Below, piece by piece: positions 4,231 to 63,288 of a stretch of 64,000 bases of DNA. This DNA comes from a virus: positions 1-64,000 of the IMG/VR virus record IMGVR_UViG_3300045282_000112. One strand, 5' to 3'. The translations under genes were made by a program, and so were the position numbers. How positions within the stretch are numbered: the first letter of the stretch is position 1; every line of letters begins with the position of its first letter. Under the pieces are notes generated by a model. That model saw only the letters and a program-made list of their open reading frames with translations, was not told the DNA's origin and did not search any database.

Positions 4231-5031
4231 ATGCCAGCGAGCAAATTGGAAACCGAACTCATCAAGATCACGAAAGTCGCACAAGCCGCAGGTGAGCCCC
4301 GTCCGAAGTATTTTCTCCGGCTGCTGCAGGAGGGCCAGAAAATCGAGACCGACCACTGGGAAGCGACGCTCTCAGCCGAGGCGCAACTCTGGTATAACCA
4401 AGCCGTCCAGCTTTACAGCGCGCACCACAATCCCAACGATATCAAAGAGTTTCCCGACTACGTGCCAACCTCGACGCGTGCCACGCTGGCACCTGAGCCA
4501 GAGCCTGAGACCGAAGACGCCGCGCCGGAAGAGACCGACGAGCCCGAGGATGCAGACGGCGGTGAAGGGCCCGAAGACGACGACGAGCCCGAAGACGACG
4601 GTGACGAAGACGCCGAGGATGAGGGTGTGACGGTCGTCGAGCCTGAGCCAGAGCCCGCCCCGTTGCAGGCTGCCACGACCAAGAAAACAACCCGCAAGCC
4701 TCCTCCCCCGAGGAAGCCGCCGCCCGCCGTCAAGACCCCTGCGAAGCCACGTCCAGCGGGTGGCATCAAGGCCAAGGACGCCAACGGCGAGTTGCTCGTG
4801 GCACCCTCGATCAGTCGTCCGCCGAAGCCCGCATCGCCGGGTGCCTCGACCATGATCAAGCGGCTGTTGCTGAAGGATATCAACATCAGCAACGCCGAGC
4901 TGATCGAGAAGCTGCGCGAGGAGAATATCCCGGTCACGTCGATCTCGGTATCGACGATCAGGTCCGATTTCCGGCACTCGCTGCGCGTGCTGCAGGAAGC
5001 GGGCTACTGCACAGAGATCGCCAATCCCTGA
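4231..5031 (+). CDS. Acidic/proline-rich protein with C-terminal HTH-like domain
   Basis: 266 residues from ATG at 4231 (GGAG 9 nt upstream). Three parts: an N-terminal helical domain (about 1-80); a low-complexity middle, first nearly all E/D/P (about 85-140), then P/K-rich (about 145-185); and a C-terminal 55-residue domain (I-K-R-L-L-L-K-D-I-N-I-S-N-A-E-L-I-E-K-L ... V-S-T-I-R-S-D-F-R) that looks like a winged or bipartite HTH. First gene of the rightward replication operon; its stop overlaps the polymerase start (TGATG), so the two are translationally coupled. A replication accessory or transcription role is inferred. Confidence 0.75.
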   Translation: MPASKLETELIKITKVAQAAGEPRPKYFLRLLQEGQKIETDHWEATLSAEAQLWYNQAVQLYSAHHNPNDIKEFPDYVPTSTRATLAPEPEPETEDAAPEETDEPEDADGGEGPEDDDEPEDDGDEDAEDEGVTVVEPEPEPAPLQAATTKKTTRKPPPPRKPPPAVKTPAKPRPAGGIKAKDANGELLVAPSISRPPKPASPGASTMIKRLLLKDINISNAELIEKLREENIPVTSISVSTIRSDFRHSLRVLQEAGYCTEIANP

Positions 5032-7490
5032 TGGCGTTCCTTGCGCCGCCGAAAAAGCGCAGCAAGCAAGCGAGCCTGACCCCTGAAGAGATGATGGCAG
5101 CGGGCTGCGAAGGATGCCCGCTGCAAGCCGCACCGAAAGCGACACCGAGCGGTGCCGACCCGTGCGACGTTTACATTCTCGGTGAGGCTCCGGGTCAGCG
5201 CGAGGCGGATGTCGGCGAGCCGTTCGTCGGCCCGTCGGGTCGGCTGCTGAAGAGCATGATCCCCGCCGTGTGGAAGCCGACGGTGCGCTTCAACAACGTC
5301 ACGATGAGCTGGCCGCCGAAGGACAACAACGGCAAGCAGATGCCGCCGACGCCGACCGCCATGTGGCACTGTCACGGCTACTTGATCGAGGACATCGAGA
5401 AATCGAAGCCGCGCGCGATCTTCGGCTTCGGTGCCACGGCGCTGCTGGCAATGACCGGGCAGCGTGGCATCAAGGCGCTCGCCGGGCGGCACATGCCGAT
5501 CACGGTCGGCAGCCACGTCTGCTGGTATTTTCCCTTCGTCCACCCCGCCTCGATCCTGCACGCCCGCGAGAAGGACCAAGACGGGCTGAAGGCGGCGCTG
5601 CGGCGGCAGATCGCGGCGTCCTTCGCGCTGGTCGACACGCTGCCTGCGCCACGCGTGGAAGGAACCGACGAGGCGCAGGCAGGCGTGCGGACGCTGCTCG
5701 ACGCCGAGCAGGCTATCGAGTGGCTGCACCGTGCGTCGTCGCTGGATCGAGTAGGCATCGATTACGAGACGACCGGGCTGTCACCTTATGCGACGGGGGC
5801 ACGCCTGCTCAGCGTCGCGTTTGCAACGGCCGAGGAGGCGGTGGCGTTCCCGCTCGACCACCGGGCCAGCCCATGGACCGAAAACGAGCGTAGCGCCATC
5901 TACGGGGCACTGCGCGCGGTTCTGGAAGCGCCGGTCCTCAAGGTGGCGCACAACGCGTCGTTCGAAATGCTCTGGAGCCTGAGCCGCTTCGGCAAGCGGG
6001 CGGCGCGGCACCGGCTGTGGGCCGACACGCTGGCGCAAGCCTTCCTGCTCGACGGGCAGCCGGGCGCGCACAGCCTCGACCACCTCTGCCAAGAGCATTT
6101 CGGGCTGGCGCTGAAGTCGGTGTCGGACCTCGACGTGACCAACCTCGACAACGAGCCGCTGCACGAGGTGCTGATCTACAACGGCATGGACGCCAAATAC
6201 TGCCTGCGGCTGTTTGAACAGCAACGGCAAGCCATCGTCGACGAGGGACTGCAGCGCGTCTATGACCACCACATGGCGCGCGTCGCCGCGCTGGTGCGTG
6301 TGCAACACGCCGGTCTGCCGGTCGACCCGACGGTCAACGCCACGCTCGCCGCAAGCTACCATGCCCAGCTCAAGAGCATCGGCAGGAAGCTGGCGCAGCT
6401 GCCCGAGGTGCAGGCGTTCGAAGCGGACGGCAAGGAGTTCAACCCGGCTGCGCCGAGGCACGTGGCGAAGATACTCGGCATCGACACGTCGAAGCCGTTC
6501 ACGACCAACGTCACGGCGCTCACCGCGCTGCACTCGCATCCTGCCAAGCTGGTGTTGAAGCGGCGCGGCCTTGCCAAGATGCTGTCCACCTACATCGAGC
6601 CATTCGGGCCCGGCGGCGGGCTGGTGCACGGCGGCAAGATACACCCGGTCATCGGCACCACGGGGACGGTGACATGGCGGACCAACAGCCAGAGCCCGAA
6701 CATCCAGAATTTCCCCAAGCGGGCCGAGCGGCACAGGGCGATCCGCAGCCAGATCGTGGCACCGTCGGGCTGCAGCATGCTGTGCGTCGACTACTCCTCG
6801 ATACAGGCGAGGAACGTCGCCATGGAGAGCCGCGACCCGACGCTGGTGCGCTACTTCATCGATCACTACGACATGCATCAGGATTGGTCGGAGCGCATCC
6901 AGCGTCGCATCCCCGGCTGGGCCAAGAAGCGTGACCAGAAGACGCTGCGCAACTGCGCCAAGAATGAACTGGTGTTCCCGTTATTTTTTGGCGCGCAGCC
7001 AGCCTCAGTGGCAGGCTACCTCGGCGTTCAGGTCAAGCATGGATACAAGCTCTACGACGAGTTCTGGCACGAGTTTCCCGAGATCAGGGTATGGCACCAT
7101 AAGCTGCACCGCTTCTATGACCGGCACCACTACGTGACCGGGCTGAGTGGCTTCCGGCGGCATGCGCCGATCACCGACAACGAGCTGGCCGCCGCACCGA
7201 TCCAAGCCGACGAGGTGTTCTTGGTCTGCGAGGCGCTGATCCGGCTGTCGCAATACGAAGACGATGCATTGCAACCCGTCATGATGATCCACGACGATCT
7301 CAGCTTCATCATCCCAAACCAGCGTCTAAACGAATGTGTTGACATTATACTGCATGAGATGCTTAGGTGCGAACACTTGTGGCTGAACGTGCCATTGGCT
7401 GTGGAAGTCAGCATCGGACAAGACTGGTGTAACTTGAGCAAAGTCGGACAATTCGAGAGCATGGGCGACGGCGGATACATTCAAATCTGA
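5031..7490 (+). CDS. Uracil-DNA glycosylase (family 4-like) fused to DNA polymerase A
   Basis: 819 residues. Residues about 20-200 are a family 4/5 UDG-like domain: CxxC at 26-29, G-E-A-P-G-Q at 51-56 followed by G-E-P-F-V-G-P-S-G, and H-P-A-S at 171-174. A DEDDy 3'-5' exonuclease follows (D244/E246 in G-I-D-Y-E-T-T-G; H-N-A-S-F-E near 307-312; Y-N-G-M-D at 383-387). The polymerase palm has motif A D-Y-S-S-I-Q-A-R near 587, motif B R-N-C-A-K-N-E-L-V-F-P-L-F-F-G, and motif C H-D-D near 754-756. There is no 5'-3' exonuclease. Of the four Fe-S cysteines expected in family 4, C26, C29 and C114 are visible, while the K-C-R-P-P position reads M-S-W-P-P. This is the phage replicase; the UDG part may bind uracil or tether rather than excise. 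Confidence 0.93.
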   Translation: MAFLAPPKKRSKQASLTPEEMMAAGCEGCPLQAAPKATPSGADPCDVYILGEAPGQREADVGEPFVGPSGRLLKSMIPAVWKPTVRFNNVTMSWPPKDNNGKQMPPTPTAMWHCHGYLIEDIEKSKPRAIFGFGATALLAMTGQRGIKALAGRHMPITVGSHVCWYFPFVHPASILHAREKDQDGLKAALRRQIAASFALVDTLPAPRVEGTDEAQAGVRTLLDAEQAIEWLHRASSLDRVGIDYETTGLSPYATGARLLSVAFATAEEAVAFPLDHRASPWTENERSAIYGALRAVLEAPVLKVAHNASFEMLWSLSRFGKRAARHRLWADTLAQAFLLDGQPGAHSLDHLCQEHFGLALKSVSDLDVTNLDNEPLHEVLIYNGMDAKYCLRLFEQQRQAIVDEGLQRVYDHHMARVAALVRVQHAGLPVDPTVNATLAASYHAQLKSIGRKLAQLPEVQAFEADGKEFNPAAPRHVAKILGIDTSKPFTTNVTALTALHSHPAKLVLKRRGLAKMLSTYIEPFGPGGGLVHGGKIHPVIGTTGTVTWRTNSQSPNIQNFPKRAERHRAIRSQIVAPSGCSMLCVDYSSIQARNVAMESRDPTLVRYFIDHYDMHQDWSERIQRRIPGWAKKRDQKTLRNCAKNELVFPLFFGAQPASVAGYLGVQVKHGYKLYDEFWHEFPEIRVWHHKLHRFYDRHHYVTGLSGFRRHAPITDNELAAAPIQADEVFLVCEALIRLSQYEDDALQPVMMIHDDLSFIIPNQRLNECVDIILHEMLRCEHLWLNVPLAVEVSIGQDWCNLSKVGQFESMGDGGYIQI

Positions 7491-46249: not shown

Positions 46250-47188
46250 CTAAATTCCGTCAACGTAGCGAACCGCGCCGGGGCGACGAACTTCGGCACC
46301 ACCAAGGCGGAAGATACCGGGGATGTCGAAAGTGATCGGGCCGGTCTGCCAGACGGGGAGGAACCTGTGCCGCATCGGGATGTGCATTTTCAGCACCGTC
46401 GGGTCGCGGCGGTAGACCATCATGCGCGCCGTGCCGCCCGCGCCTGCGGTCGCAAGCTGCCGCACCGCACGAATGGTGAGTGGCTGGCCCGTTTGCGCAG
46501 TGTAGACATTGTATTGTGACAGCCACTGCAAGATAGTCATATCAAGACTATCAGACAAACGCTTGGTGGCGATCAGCGAATACTGGTTGATCGGCAACAG
46601 GATTGTATTCGCGGTCTCGATGGTCAGCGAAGTGTTGTAGATGTCCGCCAGCGCGTTGTTAACGTCGCGCAGGATTTCATCTGCGGTCTTCACCGCCCAC
46701 GGGATGCCAGCCGCGCCTGCCTGTGCAACAGTGGCGGTGACACCTGCGGCATTGATGATGCCGGTCCACCCCTTCGTCGGGTCACCGACCATGGCGACGC
46801 GCTCGGTGAACTCCTCAGCCGCACGCACAGCTGCGCCAGCGCGCTCGGTGGTGAGGTTCCACCCGATCATCATCGCCTGACCGATCTCCTCAAGGGTATA
46901 TCGGTAGCCGATGGCCGCCATCTCGATGCCCTGTTCGTGGGCCGAGCGCTGCACATCAGCCAGCCGGATGTCGGTCGACATGTGGTGGAACCACTGTGCC
47001 TCACCCACCCGGTCGATGGAGTAGAAGGTGACGGACTTGGTCCACTCGGGCGCACTCTCGTCGATGGGGACGAGTGTCGGGTATTGGATTTCTGGATACT
47101 GAGTGCGGTAGACCTCGCTCTCAATATAGGCTGCTTGGTTGACCATAAAGGCCATCGCAGCCTGTGCATCCACGAATTGACGGGGCAT
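46250..47188 (-). CDS. Major capsid protein (DUF2184-like)
   Basis: 312 residues. Matches the DUF2184/encapsulin-like capsid pattern: R-V-G-E-A-Q-W near residue 60, I-R-L-A-D-V, Y-R-Y-T-L-E-E-I-G-Q-A-M-M-I-G, E-F-T-E-R-V-A-M-V-G-D, then L-L-P-I-N-Q-Y-S-L-I-A-T-K-R. The size, a hairpin after it and its place downstream of the scaffold/protease and cement genes support the call. Confidence 0.85.
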   Translation of the reverse strand: MPRQFVDAQAAMAFMVNQAAYIESEVYRTQYPEIQYPTLVPIDESAPEWTKSVTFYSIDRVGEAQWFHHMSTDIRLADVQRSAHEQGIEMAAIGYRYTLEEIGQAMMIGWNLTTERAGAAVRAAEEFTERVAMVGDPTKGWTGIINAAGVTATVAQAGAAGIPWAVKTADEILRDVNNALADIYNTSLTIETANTILLPINQYSLIATKRLSDSLDMTILQWLSQYNVYTAQTGQPLTIRAVRQLATAGAGGTARMMVYRRDPTVLKMHIPMRHRFLPVWQTGPITFDIPGIFRLGGAEVRRPGAVRYVDGI

Positions 47189-55788: not shown

Positions 55789-56549
55789 AGAGCGAACAGC
55801 TCCTCCCACATCGCCTGCGCGTTGGCGAGCGCTTGCGTGGCAGTAGGCCCGCTGCCGAGGCACCTGCCAGTGTGCATGGCCACGAAGCTCTCGGCTTCGA
55901 ACTGCTCGCGGCTGTCCATGGCGTAGGGTGAAACGGCGTCCTTGTCGGCGTAGCGGGCGACGATGGCGTCAACCACATCGGGCCCGTGCGCGGTGCGCAG
56001 CTCCTGCATGAGGATGTGCCCGAACTGGTGCAGGAGCGTGCCGTCGGCGCTGCTGTCGACCATCAGGCCCTTCCACTCACGCTCGTGTGCAGCGAGCTGG
56101 TCGGGGTGCCACTGGCGGGCGTTGAGGATAAGCTTGCCGTCGCCCGCCAGAACGAACTCGCGGTCGCCGAGGTCGCGCATCTCGACCTTGATGGGGCTGT
56201 CGATCAACGGGGAATAGTCCTCCGCGAGCTGGTCCATGGCGTCCTTGGCGTTGAGCTTGGCCTCGGTCTGCTTCATGCGGTAGCTGTAGCTCGGGCTGCC
56301 GTCCGGTCGCACGTCCTCCTCTTCGCCTGCGTCGTCGGGTTCCACGTCCCATTCGAGCAGGTTGTGCATGGGCATGGCGAGGTCGGAGGCGTTGAACGCG
56401 CTCTCCGGGCCCCATGTGCCCGTGCGGTTCGACCATGCGCTGATGACAGTGGTCTCTGGATTGCGCACCTCGGCGGCGCGGAACTGCTCGCCCTGCGGGG
56501 AGGTGACGTTGTAAACCCGCCGTGCGTTGGGCGGTCTGTCGGCGGCCAT
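55785..56549 (-). CDS. Virion protein with degenerate metallopeptidase motif
   Basis: 254 residues. G-T-L-L-H-Q-F-G-H-I-L-M is a zincin helix with Q in place of the catalytic E, followed by V-S-P-Y-A-M-D-S-R-E-Q-F-E-A-E-S-F, the pattern carrying the third zinc ligand in minor-capsid-associated peptidase domains. It may keep the fold and zinc but not catalysis. The N-terminus is unrelated. The stop overlaps the downstream effector gene's start. Confidence 0.68.
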   Translation of the reverse strand: MAADRPPNARRVYNVTSPQGEQFRAAEVRNPETTVISAWSNRTGTWGPESAFNASDLAMPMHNLLEWDVEPDDAGEEEDVRPDGSPSYSYRMKQTEAKLNAKDAMDQLAEDYSPLIDSPIKVEMRDLGDREFVLAGDGKLILNARQWHPDQLAAHEREWKGLMVDSSADGTLLHQFGHILMQELRTAHGPDVVDAIVARYADKDAVSPYAMDSREQFEAESFVAMHTGRCLGSGPTATQALANAQAMWEELFAL

Positions 56550-56583: not shown

Positions 56584-58977
56584 TCAGCAGTCCTTCTGCC
56601 AGCCGCAGCCGTCACCGGAGCGGTTGTAACCCTCGACGTATCCGCGCTCCGAGGTCTTCTCGATCTCGTCGATGCGCGCCTCCTCCTCGGGGCTCTTGTT
56701 CTCCTTCGCCACGAGCACGCGGCGCTCCTCGTAGAGCTGGTGACCCTCGCCGAACTTGTATTCGAGCAGCGCGTGGGTGTTGAACTGCAGCTCGGTGACG
56801 ATGCCGTCCTTGGTGCGGAAGTTGAGCATCAGGTCACGGTAGCCTGCCATGGGGGTGAGGAAGCGGTCCTTGACGCGGATCACGTCGTTGTTTTCGACGA
56901 AGTCCGCCACCGCCTGACGCACGGTCACGCAGTCGTCGAAGGCGACGGTAGCGCGCAGCACATCCTTCAATCCCTCGGGTGGCACCTTCTCGTCGCGCAT
57001 CTTGCGCTCGGCCGACGAGCGCGCCTTCATGGTGCGGGTGCCGGGCTCGGCACTGGTAGCGGGCGGGTAGGTGACCTTGCCGCCGAACTTCTGTGCAAAC
57101 TCCTCGACCGTGCTCATGAACTCAGGCTCGGCGGTCTTGCAGGCCGCATACAGCTCGTCGATGTCGTTGGTCGGCTGTATCTGCTGATCCGGCGGCTGGT
57201 AATCCGCGCCCATGTTCTGCGCGATGTCGGTCTTCTTCGCGACCGTGGCCGTGCCCTTCGACTGCGGCGCGGTCTGGGTCTTGGTGCTGCCGGTAACCTT
57301 GGTCTCGCTGCTGGAGCTGCCGCCACCGCCGGGGCCGAACTTGCCCTTGTTGTCGGGCTGGCCGCGCGGGTGCTTGCTCTCTTCCCACTCGTCGCGCGAG
57401 CGCACGCCGAGTAGCTGCCGCACATGATCAGGATCGTAGTCGCGCGTGTGCCGGTAGCGGCGCAGGTTGAGGCGACCGGCGCTGACCGGCTTGGCGTCAC
57501 GGGTTGGCTTGCCGCCACCCTTCTGGAACGGGCTACCACCACCGGGCTTCTGCTGCCCCTGCTGGCTCGGGTGCTGGTTGCCCATGGCGTTGCCCGCCAG
57601 CATCTCCTTGCGCTTCTCGGCCTCGGCTTGCGCTGCCTGCTCCTCGGGGCTCTGCATGCTTTCGAGCGCGAGCTGTTCCTGATCCTCAAGCGCCTGCTCA
57701 AGGCCCGGGTAGACGCCATCCTCGATCAGCTGGTTCTGCCGCCCGATGCGCAACGCCTCGGCGTCGACCAGCCCCATCATGACATCAAGGTTGGTGACAT
57801 CGGCCTTCAACTTGGAGACCGCCGCCTTCTCGGTGGCGGGCATCTGCCACAGCGGGTTCCAGATGTAGTAGATCGACGGGTCGCGCTTGCCCAGTGCAGA
57901 GCGGATCAGTGCATCGTCAAGAGAAGCAAGGGCGGGAGACAATACATTGGTCTGATCTGAGTTAACTCGGTCGTAGTAGTTACGGACATCACTCTCTCCA
58001 GTAGACTGTAGTCCAGCAGGGGACTGTCCCAGCATACGTGTAGCGGGGATGTCTGCTGCACCGGAGGCGATGAGGAGATACATCTGCAGGACATCGGGGA
58101 GTTGCGTGAAATTCGCATTGATGCGCTCCCACTCCTCCTCCTTGTCGAGGAGCAGCGTGTTGATCACCGACTTCACCGAGTTGGCATACATGAAGCGTGC
58201 GGTGAGCCGGTTCTGATACTCGGCGGTGGCGATGTTCTGCGACAAATCGGGGATTTTAATGATGTCGAACTTGCTTTCGGTGACCAACGTCGCGATGGAC
58301 TGTGTCACCAGCGTCGCCGACATCACGGCGTCCTGCACGTTCTGCAGCACGGGATCGCCCCAGATTTCCCCCATCATCACGGGGTCGGGCAGCTGCATGC
58401 CCTTCAGCACGATGACCCGCGACGGGTGTATCTGGAACTCGTCGCGCGACAGCTCGGTGCCAACGTCCATGTTGCGCGTGAAGTAGAGCGGCTTGCCGTA
58501 GAGCGGGTCCATCACGTCCTTGATGAGCGGACCCGTGCCCAGCGCCCAGCGTGAGACGGGAATGATGAACTCCAGATCGCCCTTGCCGACCTTCTCGAAA
58601 TTCAGCGGCTGGCTGGCGCGTCCCTGCTTGATGCCCATGATGATCGCCGCGCCGCCGTAGAGGCGCGCCAAGATCAGCGCCTCCTTCAGCACGCACTGCA
58701 CATCGAGGCGCGTCTCTTCGGCCTCCAGCTTCTCGATGACGTTGGTGTCAGCCTGCCACGCACGCCACGCGCGGGTGGCATCCTGTGCCGGGATGTCGAT
58801 CAGCTTGCGGGCCAGCCAATTGGCGCGGTAAGCGCTCTCCAGCTCATACTGTGACAGCGGGTTGAACTGGAAAAACGACGCGCCCGAGGCGGCCTTGTCG
58901 CGCCCCGGCACGCCGAAGCCTGCCATGAGGTTGATCAGGCTGTCCTTGAACTCGGCAGTCACCCCTTGATAAGTCAT
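56584..58977 (-). CDS. Portal protein (DUF1073-like) fused to RelA/SpoT-like domain
   Basis: 797 residues. Residues 1-430 are a DUF1073-type portal (Y-R-A-N-W-L-A-R-K-L-I-D-I-P-A-Q-D, A-R-L-Y-G-G-A-A-I-I-M-G, G-E-S-D-V-R-N-Y-Y-D). Linkers D-Y-D-P-D-H-V-R (513-520) and W-E-E-S-K-H-P-R-G...G-K-F-G (531-548) lead through an S/G/T tract to residues 610-750, a RelA/SpoT-synthetase-like fold: K-A-R-S-S-A-E-R-K, L-R-A-T-V-A-F-D-D, R-V-K-D (701-704), G-Y-R-D (712-715) and E-L-Q (729-731). The portal forms the DNA channel; the appended domain keeps the RxKD and ExQ motifs of nucleotide pyrophosphokinases. Alarmone-type activity is inferred. Confidence 0.82.
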   Translation of the reverse strand: MTYQGVTAEFKDSLINLMAGFGVPGRDKAASGASFFQFNPLSQYELESAYRANWLARKLIDIPAQDATRAWRAWQADTNVIEKLEAEETRLDVQCVLKEALILARLYGGAAIIMGIKQGRASQPLNFEKVGKGDLEFIIPVSRWALGTGPLIKDVMDPLYGKPLYFTRNMDVGTELSRDEFQIHPSRVIVLKGMQLPDPVMMGEIWGDPVLQNVQDAVMSATLVTQSIATLVTESKFDIIKIPDLSQNIATAEYQNRLTARFMYANSVKSVINTLLLDKEEEWERINANFTQLPDVLQMYLLIASGAADIPATRMLGQSPAGLQSTGESDVRNYYDRVNSDQTNVLSPALASLDDALIRSALGKRDPSIYYIWNPLWQMPATEKAAVSKLKADVTNLDVMMGLVDAEALRIGRQNQLIEDGVYPGLEQALEDQEQLALESMQSPEEQAAQAEAEKRKEMLAGNAMGNQHPSQQGQQKPGGGSPFQKGGGKPTRDAKPVSAGRLNLRRYRHTRDYDPDHVRQLLGVRSRDEWEESKHPRGQPDNKGKFGPGGGGSSSSETKVTGSTKTQTAPQSKGTATVAKKTDIAQNMGADYQPPDQQIQPTNDIDELYAACKTAEPEFMSTVEEFAQKFGGKVTYPPATSAEPGTRTMKARSSAERKMRDEKVPPEGLKDVLRATVAFDDCVTVRQAVADFVENNDVIRVKDRFLTPMAGYRDLMLNFRTKDGIVTELQFNTHALLEYKFGEGHQLYEERRVLVAKENKSPEEEARIDEIEKTSERGYVEGYNRSGDGCGWQKDC

Positions 58978-61535: not shown

Positions 61536-61744
61536 TTCTTGAACTTCGGCATACCGGGACGGTCAAGCCCGACATCGGGCAGCGGCTGCTCTGGCCTCGG
61601 CTGCGGGCGCACCGAGCGGGCCGCCTTCATGCGTGTCGCCATCTCGCGGATGAACTCGTGGCGCGTGATGCCCATTGCGTCCCACGGCGTCTGCTTCTTG
61701 TCGCCGGTCGCGGGCTTCGCGGCGGTCTTCGCTGCTGCTACCAT
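61532..61744 (-). CDS. Small hypothetical protein (70 aa)
   Basis: Overlaps the terminase end by 7 nt. Basic, P-rich C-terminus; W-D-A-M-G-I-T-R-H-E-F-I-R-E-M near the middle. Function unknown. Confidence 0.65.
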   Translation of the reverse strand: MVAAAKTAAKPATGDKKQTPWDAMGITRHEFIREMATRMKAARSVRPQPRPEQPLPDVGLDRPGMPKFKN

Positions 61745-63288
61745 AGCCTTGCTCCTCCGAACACCTTCTGTGCCAGAATGTTGCTGGGAACGTCGCCGAC
61801 CCAGCTCATGTCGCTGCGGTAAGTAGAGCCCAGCGTGAGCTTGGAGAACGCGCCTGCGGCTGCATCCACCATGTCAACGTAGGCTCCGTTGGGGAAGGTC
61901 TCGTGCTCGCCGATGAACTCCTTGTTCCACTCGGCGGCGAGGATCGACACGTTGCCTGCCTGAACTTGGGCGGCGTAGGGATCGGCGCGGATGTGCTTGG
62001 CATCGGTGACCTTGTCGGCCTCCACCTTGTAGCCCGACAGCATGCGCACCGTGGCCTCGGCGCTGTCCTTGCCACCTGAGCCGGGCTCTTGCTCTACCAC
62101 GGTCAGCACGTTGTTGCCCACGTCCTGCCGGTCGAGCTGTGCTGTCTGCAGGATCATCTTCTCGCGGTCGAGCGCCGAGAGCTGCTTGCGGCGCACGTCG
62201 GTGACGATGAAGCGCCCGTCATTCAGCTTCGACATGCGCACGCCCGCAGTATAAGCACCACCCATTTCTGTGGCTGCTTTGTCCCAGTAACGGACAGTCT
62301 TGGCGATGTCCTTGGGTGCTGCTTGCACAACACGAAATTGCTCGATGGGGAACATACCCCCGCCAGCAATGATCGGGTTCTGCTGGTATAAGCTCACCCA
62401 TGAGGCTTGGCTCAGGCCACGGCGGCGTTCCTCTAGGAACTCCAGCGACTTGAACTCGGGGAACAGCGCCTCGCCCTTCTTGCGGTGCGCCTCGTCCTTG
62501 ATGGCGATGGCCGGGTAGTCGAGCACCACGGTCTCGGGGAATTTTTCGAGGAAGCGACCGGCCGGATCGTCGAGGTGCCAGCGGGTCAGCGTCATCAGCA
62601 GCGCGGCGTGATCCGAGAAGCGGGTGAAGAAGTCGTCGGTGAGCCAGCTCCACGTCGCGTCGCGCACGGTCTTGGAATTGGCCTCGCGCCTGCCCTTGAT
62701 CGGATCGTCGATGAAGCCGAAATCAAGGCCCTTGCCCGTGACCTGTCCCGACACCGTCGTGTTGCGGAAACTGCCCTTGAATGCGCCCTGCACGGTCGGG
62801 TTAGTCGGCGTGTGCTCGCCCATGTATTCGAGCAGGTTGTTGTTGCGCATGCCCCCGACAGAGCGGCCGAAGGTGGGGAGGCGAGCACCGAACACTGACT
62901 TGAAGCGGTCGCCGTCCATCATGCGCTGCAGTGAGACGTTGACGCCCTGCCCGAGGTCGTCGGAATAGCTGGTGAACAGGCACTTGAGATTTGGATTGCG
63001 GCCCGCCACCCATGCGATGAAGTCGGTGACCACGGTCGTCTTGCCGTGCTGTGGTGGTGCCATCAACACAAGCTTTGGCCGCTCACCGTTCATGAAGCGG
63101 TAGTAGAACGCCTCAAGATGGTCGCATACTTCCTTGATCCACCAGCCGCGAACCAAGTCTTTCTCACGGATGTGACAACGGAAATTGTAGAAGAACTGTC
63201 GCGCCTCGCAGCGCGCCAACTCCTCTACCAATGCTACATCACGGCTGTTCTTGACCTTCGGCAGGAGGTCAGTGGTAAATCCGGTCAA
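61738..63288 (-). CDS. terL: Terminase large subunit
   Basis: 516 residues. ATPase: Walker A A-P-P-Q-H-G-K-T near 73-80, then F-T-S-Y-S-D-D-L; Walker-B-like F-G-F-I-D-D-P near 183-189. Nuclease: R-Y-W-D-K-A-A-T near 325, V-E-Q-E-P-G-S-G-G-K-D-S-A, and D-M-V-D-A-A-A-G-A-F. Cuts and pumps genome DNA into the prohead. A TerS-like gene overlaps its start by 20 nt. Packaging gene at the head of the virion operon. Confidence 0.95.
   Translation of the reverse strand: MTGFTTDLLPKVKNSRDVALVEELARCEARQFFYNFRCHIREKDLVRGWWIKEVCDHLEAFYYRFMNGERPKLVLMAPPQHGKTTVVTDFIAWVAGRNPNLKCLFTSYSDDLGQGVNVSLQRMMDGDRFKSVFGARLPTFGRSVGGMRNNNLLEYMGEHTPTNPTVQGAFKGSFRNTTVSGQVTGKGLDFGFIDDPIKGRREANSKTVRDATWSWLTDDFFTRFSDHAALLMTLTRWHLDDPAGRFLEKFPETVVLDYPAIAIKDEAHRKKGEALFPEFKSLEFLEERRRGLSQASWVSLYQQNPIIAGGGMFPIEQFRVVQAAPKDIAKTVRYWDKAATEMGGAYTAGVRMSKLNDGRFIVTDVRRKQLSALDREKMILQTAQLDRQDVGNNVLTVVEQEPGSGGKDSAEATVRMLSGYKVEADKVTDAKHIRADPYAAQVQAGNVSILAAEWNKEFIGEHETFPNGAYVDMVDAAAGAFSKLTLGSTYRSDMSWVGDVPSNILAQKVFGGARLW

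What the first reader, a model, noticed from the sequence alone, without database searches (positions are those of the whole stretch)
56584..58977. Portal protein carrying a RelA/SpoT-like domain
After a DUF1073-type portal body and a flexible linker, the C-terminus has R-V-K-D and E-L-Q with surrounding G-Y-R-D and L-R-A-T-V-A-F-D-D, as in (p)ppGpp/ToxRel-type synthetases. An alarmone-type or RNA-pyrophosphorylating enzyme in each virion would be delivered in up to twelve copies or act during assembly.
Basis: partly seen in the sequence, partly recalled or inferred. Interest (0 to 1): 0.85.

Follow-up and report, generated by a model that had tools for sequence, protein, structure and literature searches.

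The report
Phage portal carrying an alarmone-synthetase domain
This bacterial virus has fused an intact-looking enzyme of the kind that makes bacterial alarm nucleotides (or kills rivals by doing so) onto the ring protein through which its DNA enters and leaves the capsid, apparently as cargo in a slot where related viruses carry other enzymes, including an anti-immunity one.

Summary
The finding holds up. ORF 56584-58977(-), 797 aa, is a DUF1073/HI1409-type portal (Pfam PF06381, E=7.5e-99), a low-complexity linker, and a C-terminal RelA/SpoT-type (RSH) synthetase domain (residues ~605-797). Alone, the domain matches Tas1, a T6SS (p)ppApp-synthetase toxin (E=3.9e-5). A profile built without it finds it at E=8.6e-28 (best of 2000 shuffles 8 bits, against 93). 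AlphaFold2 gives pLDDT 90.6, and Foldseek ranks Tas1 first (E=1.6e-8). Donor-site and catalytic residues are all kept (D672, R675, K703, Y713, E729, Q731). The acceptor-base motif is Asp-x-Met, neither the SxH of (p)ppGpp makers nor the GxN of (p)ppApp makers, so the product is open. The portal C-terminus is a swap slot: an 83-85% identical portal in a syntenic phage carries an oxidoreductase instead, and many relatives carry Acb1, an anti-CBASS enzyme. A shared linker motif marks the junction. RSH fused to MuF and other enzymes fused to portals are published; I found no published portal-RSH fusion, and this record is the only one found. Most likely it is a virion-borne synthetase, released at the linker and acting on nucleotides in the newly infected cell. 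Fold and fusion are shown; delivery, activity and product are inferred.

The parts
56584..58977 (-). Whole fusion ORF: portal + linker + RSH synthetase domain (797 aa)
57793..58848 (-). Portal core, residues 44-395 (Phage_portal_3 / DUF1073; HI1409 family)
   Evidence: PF06381 E=7.5e-99; TIGR01555 E=8e-72; 85% identical to L029 portal over residues 7-444
57166..57642 (-). Linker, about residues 446-604, Gln/Pro/Gly/Ser-rich; homology to the closest relative's portal ends at its start
   Evidence: searches (match to L029 ends at residue 444; weak similarity to residue 466), sequence
57325..57372 (-). Linker motif HPRGQPDNKGKFGPGG, residues 536-551, recurring in cargo genes of this and related phages
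   Evidence: 4 copies in the 84-kb proteome against 0.04 in shuffles (pattern chosen after seeing the sequences)
56587..57165 (-). RSH synthetase domain, residues 605-797; catalytic D672, R675, K703, Y713, E729, Q731; syn3 motif G712-Y-R-D715-L-M717
55785..56549 (-). Next gene downstream, 254 aa, unknown; only positional candidate for an immunity gene; no relative found
   Evidence: low-confidence model, pLDDT 48.8
53350..55863 (-). Downstream multi-domain cargo-type protein with two copies of the linker motif; part matches a cyanophage polyvalent protein, part matches minor capsid proteins
51629..53533 (-). Downstream protein with one linker motif and DUF7178
49963..51048 (-). Separate MuF-type minor head protein without an RSH domain (in Apk2 toxins the RSH is fused to this protein instead)
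   Evidence: PF04233 E=1.4e-6, just under cut-off; SPP1_gp7 E=2.6e-9
61738..63288 (-). Terminase large subunit, placing the fusion in the head/packaging operon
   Evidence: PF03237 E=3.4e-16
46250..47188 (-). Major capsid protein
   Evidence: PF09950 E=4.5e-84

Best explanation
The gene makes a functional portal whose C-terminus carries an active RSH-type pyrophosphokinase as cargo. SHOWN by computation: portal, linker and RSH domain lie in one ORF; the domain has the RSH synthetase fold; its donor-site and catalytic residues are conserved; the portal C-terminus is an exchangeable slot in this portal family. INFERRED: the portal C-terminus faces the capsid interior, as in solved portals, so up to 12 copies sit beside the packaged DNA. 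The domain is freed by cleavage in the linker (about residues 531-560) and enters the cell with or after the DNA. There it transfers pyrophosphate from ATP to the 3'-OH of a purine nucleotide (most likely, about 65%) or of tRNA (about 25%). This would drain ATP/GTP, make alarmone and push the host into shutdown that favours the phage, as a head-borne host-takeover or counter-defence enzyme rather than a lysogen's rival-killing toxin. The acceptor motif is Asp-x-Met, so whether the product is a G or an A alarmone cannot be told from sequence.
For: Portal. RSH: phmmer Tas1 E=3.9e-5; profile against PDB, Tas1 1.4e-20, Rel 3.8e-10, YwaC 1.2e-9, SaSAS 1.3e-9; profile without the window finds it at 8.6e-28; model pLDDT 90.6; Foldseek Tas1 1.6e-8, SaEAS 4.5e-7, then RelQ/RelP/Rel. 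Active site: K651, K659, D672, R675, K703, E729, Q731 and H746 invariant in the 19-sequence alignment; they correspond to SaEAS D121/R124 and Apk1 R330/K353/E382 (PMC12691689). Cargo slot: L029 is syntenic from the terminase genes to portal residue 444 at 85% identity, then carries an oxidoreductase; 11 portal relatives carry Acb1 at Pfam significance, and isolated phages do too. Other RSH relatives also sit on head or polyvalent proteins: MuF fusions L024 and L068, polyvalent L014 and L065, and the gene after the portal in Bordetella phage PHB04. Precedent: MuF-RSH Apk2 domains make (p)ppApp and kill E. coli (PMC12226406).
Against: Only one record has the portal-RSH fusion. No virion proteomics or enzymology. 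No HD_4-type alarmone hydrolase in the 84-kb record, though such a gene accompanies the RSH in PHB04-type phages; an active enzyme made late would have to be tolerated by the producing cell without it. A cargo attached to 12 portal subunits may be hard to release. The syn3 residue that is Asn in Tas1 is Met here.
Confidence: 0.55

Rival explanations
1. The RSH domain works in the producing cell, not the next one: during late expression the portal fusion makes alarmone to shut host processes down or retune nucleotide pools, and is then trimmed off or left as a passenger in the capsid.
For: It is expressed with head genes, so active enzyme would be present before assembly; no dedicated hydrolase is seen in the record, so a tolerated late activity is conceivable.
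Against: ATP drain late in infection would harm assembly. A fusion to a low-copy head protein is not needed for cytoplasmic action, whereas relatives repeatedly place RSH on head or polyvalent proteins, which fits delivery.
Confidence: 0.17
2. It is a MuF/Apk2-type polymorphic toxin moved to the portal: a (p)ppApp synthetase used by a temperate phage or its lysogen against competitors, with immunity encoded nearby.
For: Best sequence and fold neighbour is Tas1; MuF-RSH toxins are established (PMC12226406); an unknown 254-aa gene lies directly downstream.
Against: No Phage_integrase match in the record and no HD_4 hydrolase. The syn3 motif is DxM, not the GxN of Apk enzymes. The downstream gene has no detectable relation to a known immunity protein. 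Acb1 in the same slot points to an infection-stage role.
Confidence: 0.13
3. It is a counter-defence enzyme: like Acb1 in the same portal slot, it blunts nucleotide-based or toxSAS-type host immunity on entry.
For: Acb1 (Pfam 'Anti-CBASS protein') is the commonest recognised cargo at this portal end.
Against: Acb1 degrades signals, RSH makes them. No defence target is evident; PADLOC gives no match.
Confidence: 0.1
4. The domain is a catalytically dead structural add-on, or the fusion is an assembly chimera.
For: Single record; divergent acceptor motif; missed by Pfam.
Against: All donor-site and catalytic residues are kept; coding statistics are uniform across the junction; head genes lie on both sides and upstream synteny with L029 is intact; the linker motif is shared with two nearby downstream genes.
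Confidence: 0.05

Closest known systems
Apk2 / MuF polymorphic toxins (S. pneumoniae, M. haemolytica, P. multocida, B. caccae prophages; PMC12226406)
   Same: RSH synthetase domain fused C-terminally to a phage head protein of the portal/MuF region
   Different: Carrier is MuF, not the portal; syn3 is GxN against DxM here; Apk2 is followed by IapK and Aph1 immunity genes, while no HD_4 hydrolase is found here; MuF is a separate gene in this phage
Tas1/Apk1 (T6SS effector, PDB 6OX6)
   Same: Closest solved structure by sequence and by fold
   Different: Delivered on a PAAR protein by T6SS; makes (p)ppApp; about 24% identity
Phage polyvalent proteins with RelA/SpoT domains; 2H, PBECR and InPase domains fused to portals (Iyer 2017, PMC5512222)
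   Same: Same principle of enzyme domains riding on virion proteins; RSH reported on MuF and in large polyvalent proteins, other enzymes reported on portals
   Different: In the passages found, RSH is reported on MuF and in polyvalent proteins, not on a portal; here the RSH is the only cargo on an ordinary-sized portal
Portal-Acb1 fusions (seen here in Rhizobium, Pseudomonas phiPSA1, Synechococcus and Aminobacter phages and IMG/VR contigs)
   Same: Same portal family, same C-terminal slot
   Different: Cargo is a 2H phosphoesterase (Acb1) rather than a synthetase
RSH head/polyvalent relatives in viral contigs (PHB04 type, L014, L065, L068)
   Same: Shared GYxD syn3 signature and full catalytic set
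   Different: Carrier is a different head protein, MuF or a giant polyvalent protein; PHB04 type has an HD hydrolase just downstream

Membership tests
RelA/SpoT homologue (RSH) synthetase superfamily | SYNTH fold | tested here: met
   AlphaFold2 pLDDT 90.6; Foldseek top hits are all RSH synthetases, probability 1.00
RelA/SpoT homologue (RSH) synthetase superfamily | Mg-binding Asp and Glu, donor-site Lys/Arg, base-stacking Tyr | tested here: met
   D672, E729, K651, K659, R675, K703, Y713 conserved and aligned with Tas1/Rel
RelA/SpoT homologue (RSH) synthetase superfamily | Significant sequence similarity | tested here: met
   phmmer Tas1 3.9e-5; profile against Rel/SAS 1e-9 to 1e-10; not reached by PF04607
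RelA/SpoT homologue (RSH) synthetase superfamily | ATP:nucleotide (or tRNA) 3'-pyrophosphotransfer | not testable with these tools
   needs enzymology
DUF1073/HI1409 phage portal | Portal domain in the terminase-portal-capsid operon | tested here: met
   PF06381 7.5e-99; terminase upstream, capsid downstream
Apk2 MuF toxin | N-terminal MuF domain | tested here: not met
   N-terminus is a portal; MuF is a separate gene at 49963-51048
Apk2 MuF toxin | Adenosine-type syn3 motif GxN | tested here: not met
   D715-L-M717; GxN as described in PMC12226406
Apk2 MuF toxin | Adjacent Aph1-type hydrolase and IapK inhibitor | tested here: not met
   no HD_4 in the 84-kb record; the downstream gene has no recognised relation to an inhibitor; the record may be incomplete
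(p)ppGpp synthetase of the stringent response (RelQ/RelP/Rel) | Guanosine-type syn3 motif SxH | tested here: not met
   DxM
tRNA-pyrophosphorylating toxSAS (FaRel2, CapRel) | Basic tRNA-binding patch in the N-terminal helices and a small acceptor-site positive patch | not tested
   CapRel and FaRel2 are weaker structural matches than Tas1 (E 3e-4 and 6e-3)
Virion-delivered (polyvalent-type) cargo | Fusion to a virion structural protein | tested here: met
   fusion to the portal; modular exchange in relatives
Virion-delivered (polyvalent-type) cargo | Presence in particles and entry into the host | not testable with these tools
   needs virion proteomics and translocation assays

The most novel reading that the evidence does not exclude
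A phage carries an alarmone- or tRNA-modifying synthetase of a new acceptor class (GYRD-x-M) in up to 12 copies on its portal ring and injects it with the genome, so that host nucleotide signalling is reset before any phage gene is expressed; the portal C-terminus is a general loading slot that swaps such enzymes with anti-immunity enzymes such as Acb1.
Probability: 0.35. Interest if true: 0.85.

Novelty: new variant of a known kind. Interest (0 to 1): 0.58.

Why it matters
If right, the portal, a universal part of tailed phages, doubles as a loading slot for enzymes. One phage family then offers a matched set (no cargo, Acb1, oxidoreductase, RSH) in which delivery, release at a shared linker motif and the effect on host nucleotide signalling can be tested directly. 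It also adds an RSH subgroup with an acceptor motif of neither known type, whose product is open, and whose window member Pfam's RelA_SpoT model does not detect.

Tried and rejected
Pfam RelA_SpoT (PF04607), PADLOC and NCBIfam do not name the domain. The window domain alone found no viral relatives by peptide patterns; relatives came through PHB04 and mixed alignments; A2 was too diverse to scan with; a further scan gave nothing new. Genome contigs gave one hit, and 369 genomes of that host class gave one more: rare in bacterial genomes. A second portal-RSH fusion was sought among 43 portal contigs and not found; the 35 were searched with the RSH profile, the later ones only read. A tree of the RSH domains could not place the window (long branches, few supported forks). 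The downstream gene 55785-56549 was considered as immunity: no relatives, no PDB match, model too poor to use. The 'RelA/SpoT' annotation of a Synechococcus phage MinM2 polyvalent protein that shares a domain with 53350-55863 does not match the RSH profile at E<=1. Distances between active-site residues could not be computed: coordinates not available.

Full report
Observation. ORF 56584-58977 on the minus strand encodes 797 aa without interruption. Residues 44-395 are a Phage_portal_3 (formerly DUF1073) domain, E=7.5e-99, of the HI1409 family. Terminase large subunit lies upstream (61738-63288), and a MuF-type protein (49963-51048), a DUF2213 protein (47734-49206) and the major capsid protein (46250-47188) downstream. 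The window belongs to an 84,383-base IMG/VR virus record with its own DNA polymerase, RecA, DnaB-type helicase and SNF2-type helicase and no Phage_integrase match; its completeness is unknown.

The C-terminal domain is an RSH synthetase. The 193 C-terminal residues alone match Tas1 (6OX6) at E=3.9e-5. A 12-sequence profile reaches Tas1 at 1.4e-20, S. aureus Rel at 3.8e-10, YwaC at 1.2e-9 and the exported synthetase SaSAS at 1.3e-9. To avoid circularity I rebuilt the profile from 18 relatives without the window: the ORF is the only hit in the window's six frames, E=8.6e-28, 92.7 bits, and the best of 2000 shuffles of the domain scores 8.1 bits. AlphaFold2 gives pLDDT 90.6 and pTM 0.83. Foldseek against the PDB ranks Tas1 first (1.6e-8), then SaEAS, RelQ, RelP, Rel and CapRel; against viral models it finds polyvalent proteins and others labelled RelA/SpoT. 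Pfam's RelA_SpoT model misses it.

Active site. Across 19 aligned sequences K651, K659, D672, R675, K703, Y713, E729, Q731, K741, H746 and R753 are invariant. D672/R675 correspond to SaEAS D121/R124, and R675, K703 and E729 to Apk1 R330, K353 and E382 (residues from PMC12691689; correspondence from the and 40 alignments). The acceptor-base motif differs: PMC12226406 describes SxH at syn3 for (p)ppGpp synthetases and GxN for Apk (p)ppApp synthetases, while the window has D715-L-M717. The Asp is kept in 18 of the 19 sequences; the exception, MuF fusion L024, has GxN. The product therefore cannot be read from sequence. Swapping syn motifs did not convert Apk2 either.

Relatives of the domain. They sit on phage head or polyvalent proteins: a head gene next to the portal in Bordetella phage PHB04 and many contigs, MuF fusions L024 and L068, and giant polyvalent proteins L014 and L065. 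In PHB04 and in L010's phage an HD_4 hydrolase lies just downstream; none is found in the window's record. In 369 genomes of one host class the profile found only two matches at E<=1e-14.

The portal end is a swap slot. The closest portal, L029, is syntenic with the window from the small genes before the terminase to portal residue 444 (85% identity over that stretch; 83% over the aligned portal), then departs into a pyridine nucleotide-disulphide oxidoreductase. Among 43 portal contigs about half end without a large extension. Eleven carry Acb1 at Pfam significance; L072, L074 and L075 look the same by motif and L055 has the same extension as L048. Two (L037, L038) carry a weakly ADP-ribosyltransferase-like end (E about 0.003-0.005, under Pfam's cut-off). 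No other carries RSH by profile among the loci searched. In isolated phages Acb1 falls within the annotated portal gene of Rhizobium, Pseudomonas, Synechococcus and Aminobacter phages.

Linker. The window linker holds HPRGQPDNKGKFGPGG (residues 536-551). Similar motifs (for example PDQPRDPSGQW) occur four times in the 84-kb proteome, in the portal and in two nearby downstream genes, against 0.04 expected from shuffles, and recur at cargo junctions in related contigs. The pattern was written after seeing the sequences, so the number is descriptive. A cleavage or loading signal is a hypothesis.

Mechanism. Shown: fusion, fold, conserved catalytic set, exchangeable slot. Inferred: capsid-interior position and up to 12 copies (general portal architecture, own knowledge); release at the linker and delivery with DNA; pyrophosphate transfer to a purine nucleotide (preferred because Tas1 and SaEAS are the nearest structures) or to tRNA; effect on the host by nucleotide drain and alarmone. 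Rivals are late action in the producer cell, an Apk2-like lysogen toxin, counter-defence, and a dead domain or chimera.

Known or new. Iyer et al. 2017 (PMC5512222) described RelA/SpoT domains fused to MuF and in polyvalent proteins, and PBECR, 2H and inorganic pyrophosphatase domains fused to portals; Apk2 enzymology is in PMC12226406. Exported synthetases on many delivery systems are described in PMC12691689, where the phage carrier listed is SPP1/MuF. I found no report of a portal-RSH fusion in the searches made, which cover open-licence papers only. Hence a new variant of a known kind, with an acceptor motif outside the two described classes.

Noticed in passing
L033, L035, L036, L040, L042, L044, L046, L048, L049, L050, L054 and isolates H41-H61: The anti-CBASS enzyme Acb1 is fused to the C-terminus of DUF1073-family portals in many phages, which would put an anti-immunity enzyme in the virion.
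   Followed up: partly
L029:5974-10326: Portal (85% identical to the window's over the core) fused to a pyridine nucleotide-disulphide oxidoreductase (PF07992, E=3.3e-34), followed by a second linker-motif copy and an unidentified C-terminal domain.
   Followed up: partly
window 57325-57372, 53350-55863, 51629-53533; L029, L039, L041, L046, L051, L074: Recurring inter-domain motif of the form (D)P(D/N)(Q/E)PR...G(Q/K/R)(W/F)..GG at cargo junctions of head genes; possible processing or loading signal.
   Followed up: partly
window 5031-7490: DNA polymerase A with an N-terminal uracil-DNA glycosylase domain fused in front of the exonuclease and polymerase (UDG 42-187, exo 221-397, polA 446-800).
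   Followed up: no
window 55785-56549: 254-aa orphan directly after the portal-RSH gene; has LLHQFGHILMQEL, like a zincin HExxH with Glu replaced by Gln.
   Followed up: partly
window 53350-55863: 837-aa protein: residues 104-283 match a cyanophage polyvalent protein, residues 438-590 match the C-terminus of Microbacterium phage minor capsid proteins, and an HEVMH motif lies further on.
   Followed up: partly
L002:5008-7968 (Bordetella phage PHB04) and L010: RSH head gene followed by an HD_4 alarmone-hydrolase gene (in PHB04 then a protein phosphatase) between portal and MuF: looks like toxin plus immunity inside a virion operon.
   Followed up: partly
L081:2578-10989 (Synechococcus phage MinM2): Protein annotated 'RelA/SpoT' that does not match the RSH profile built here; annotation may rest on another domain or a distant RSH.
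   Followed up: partly
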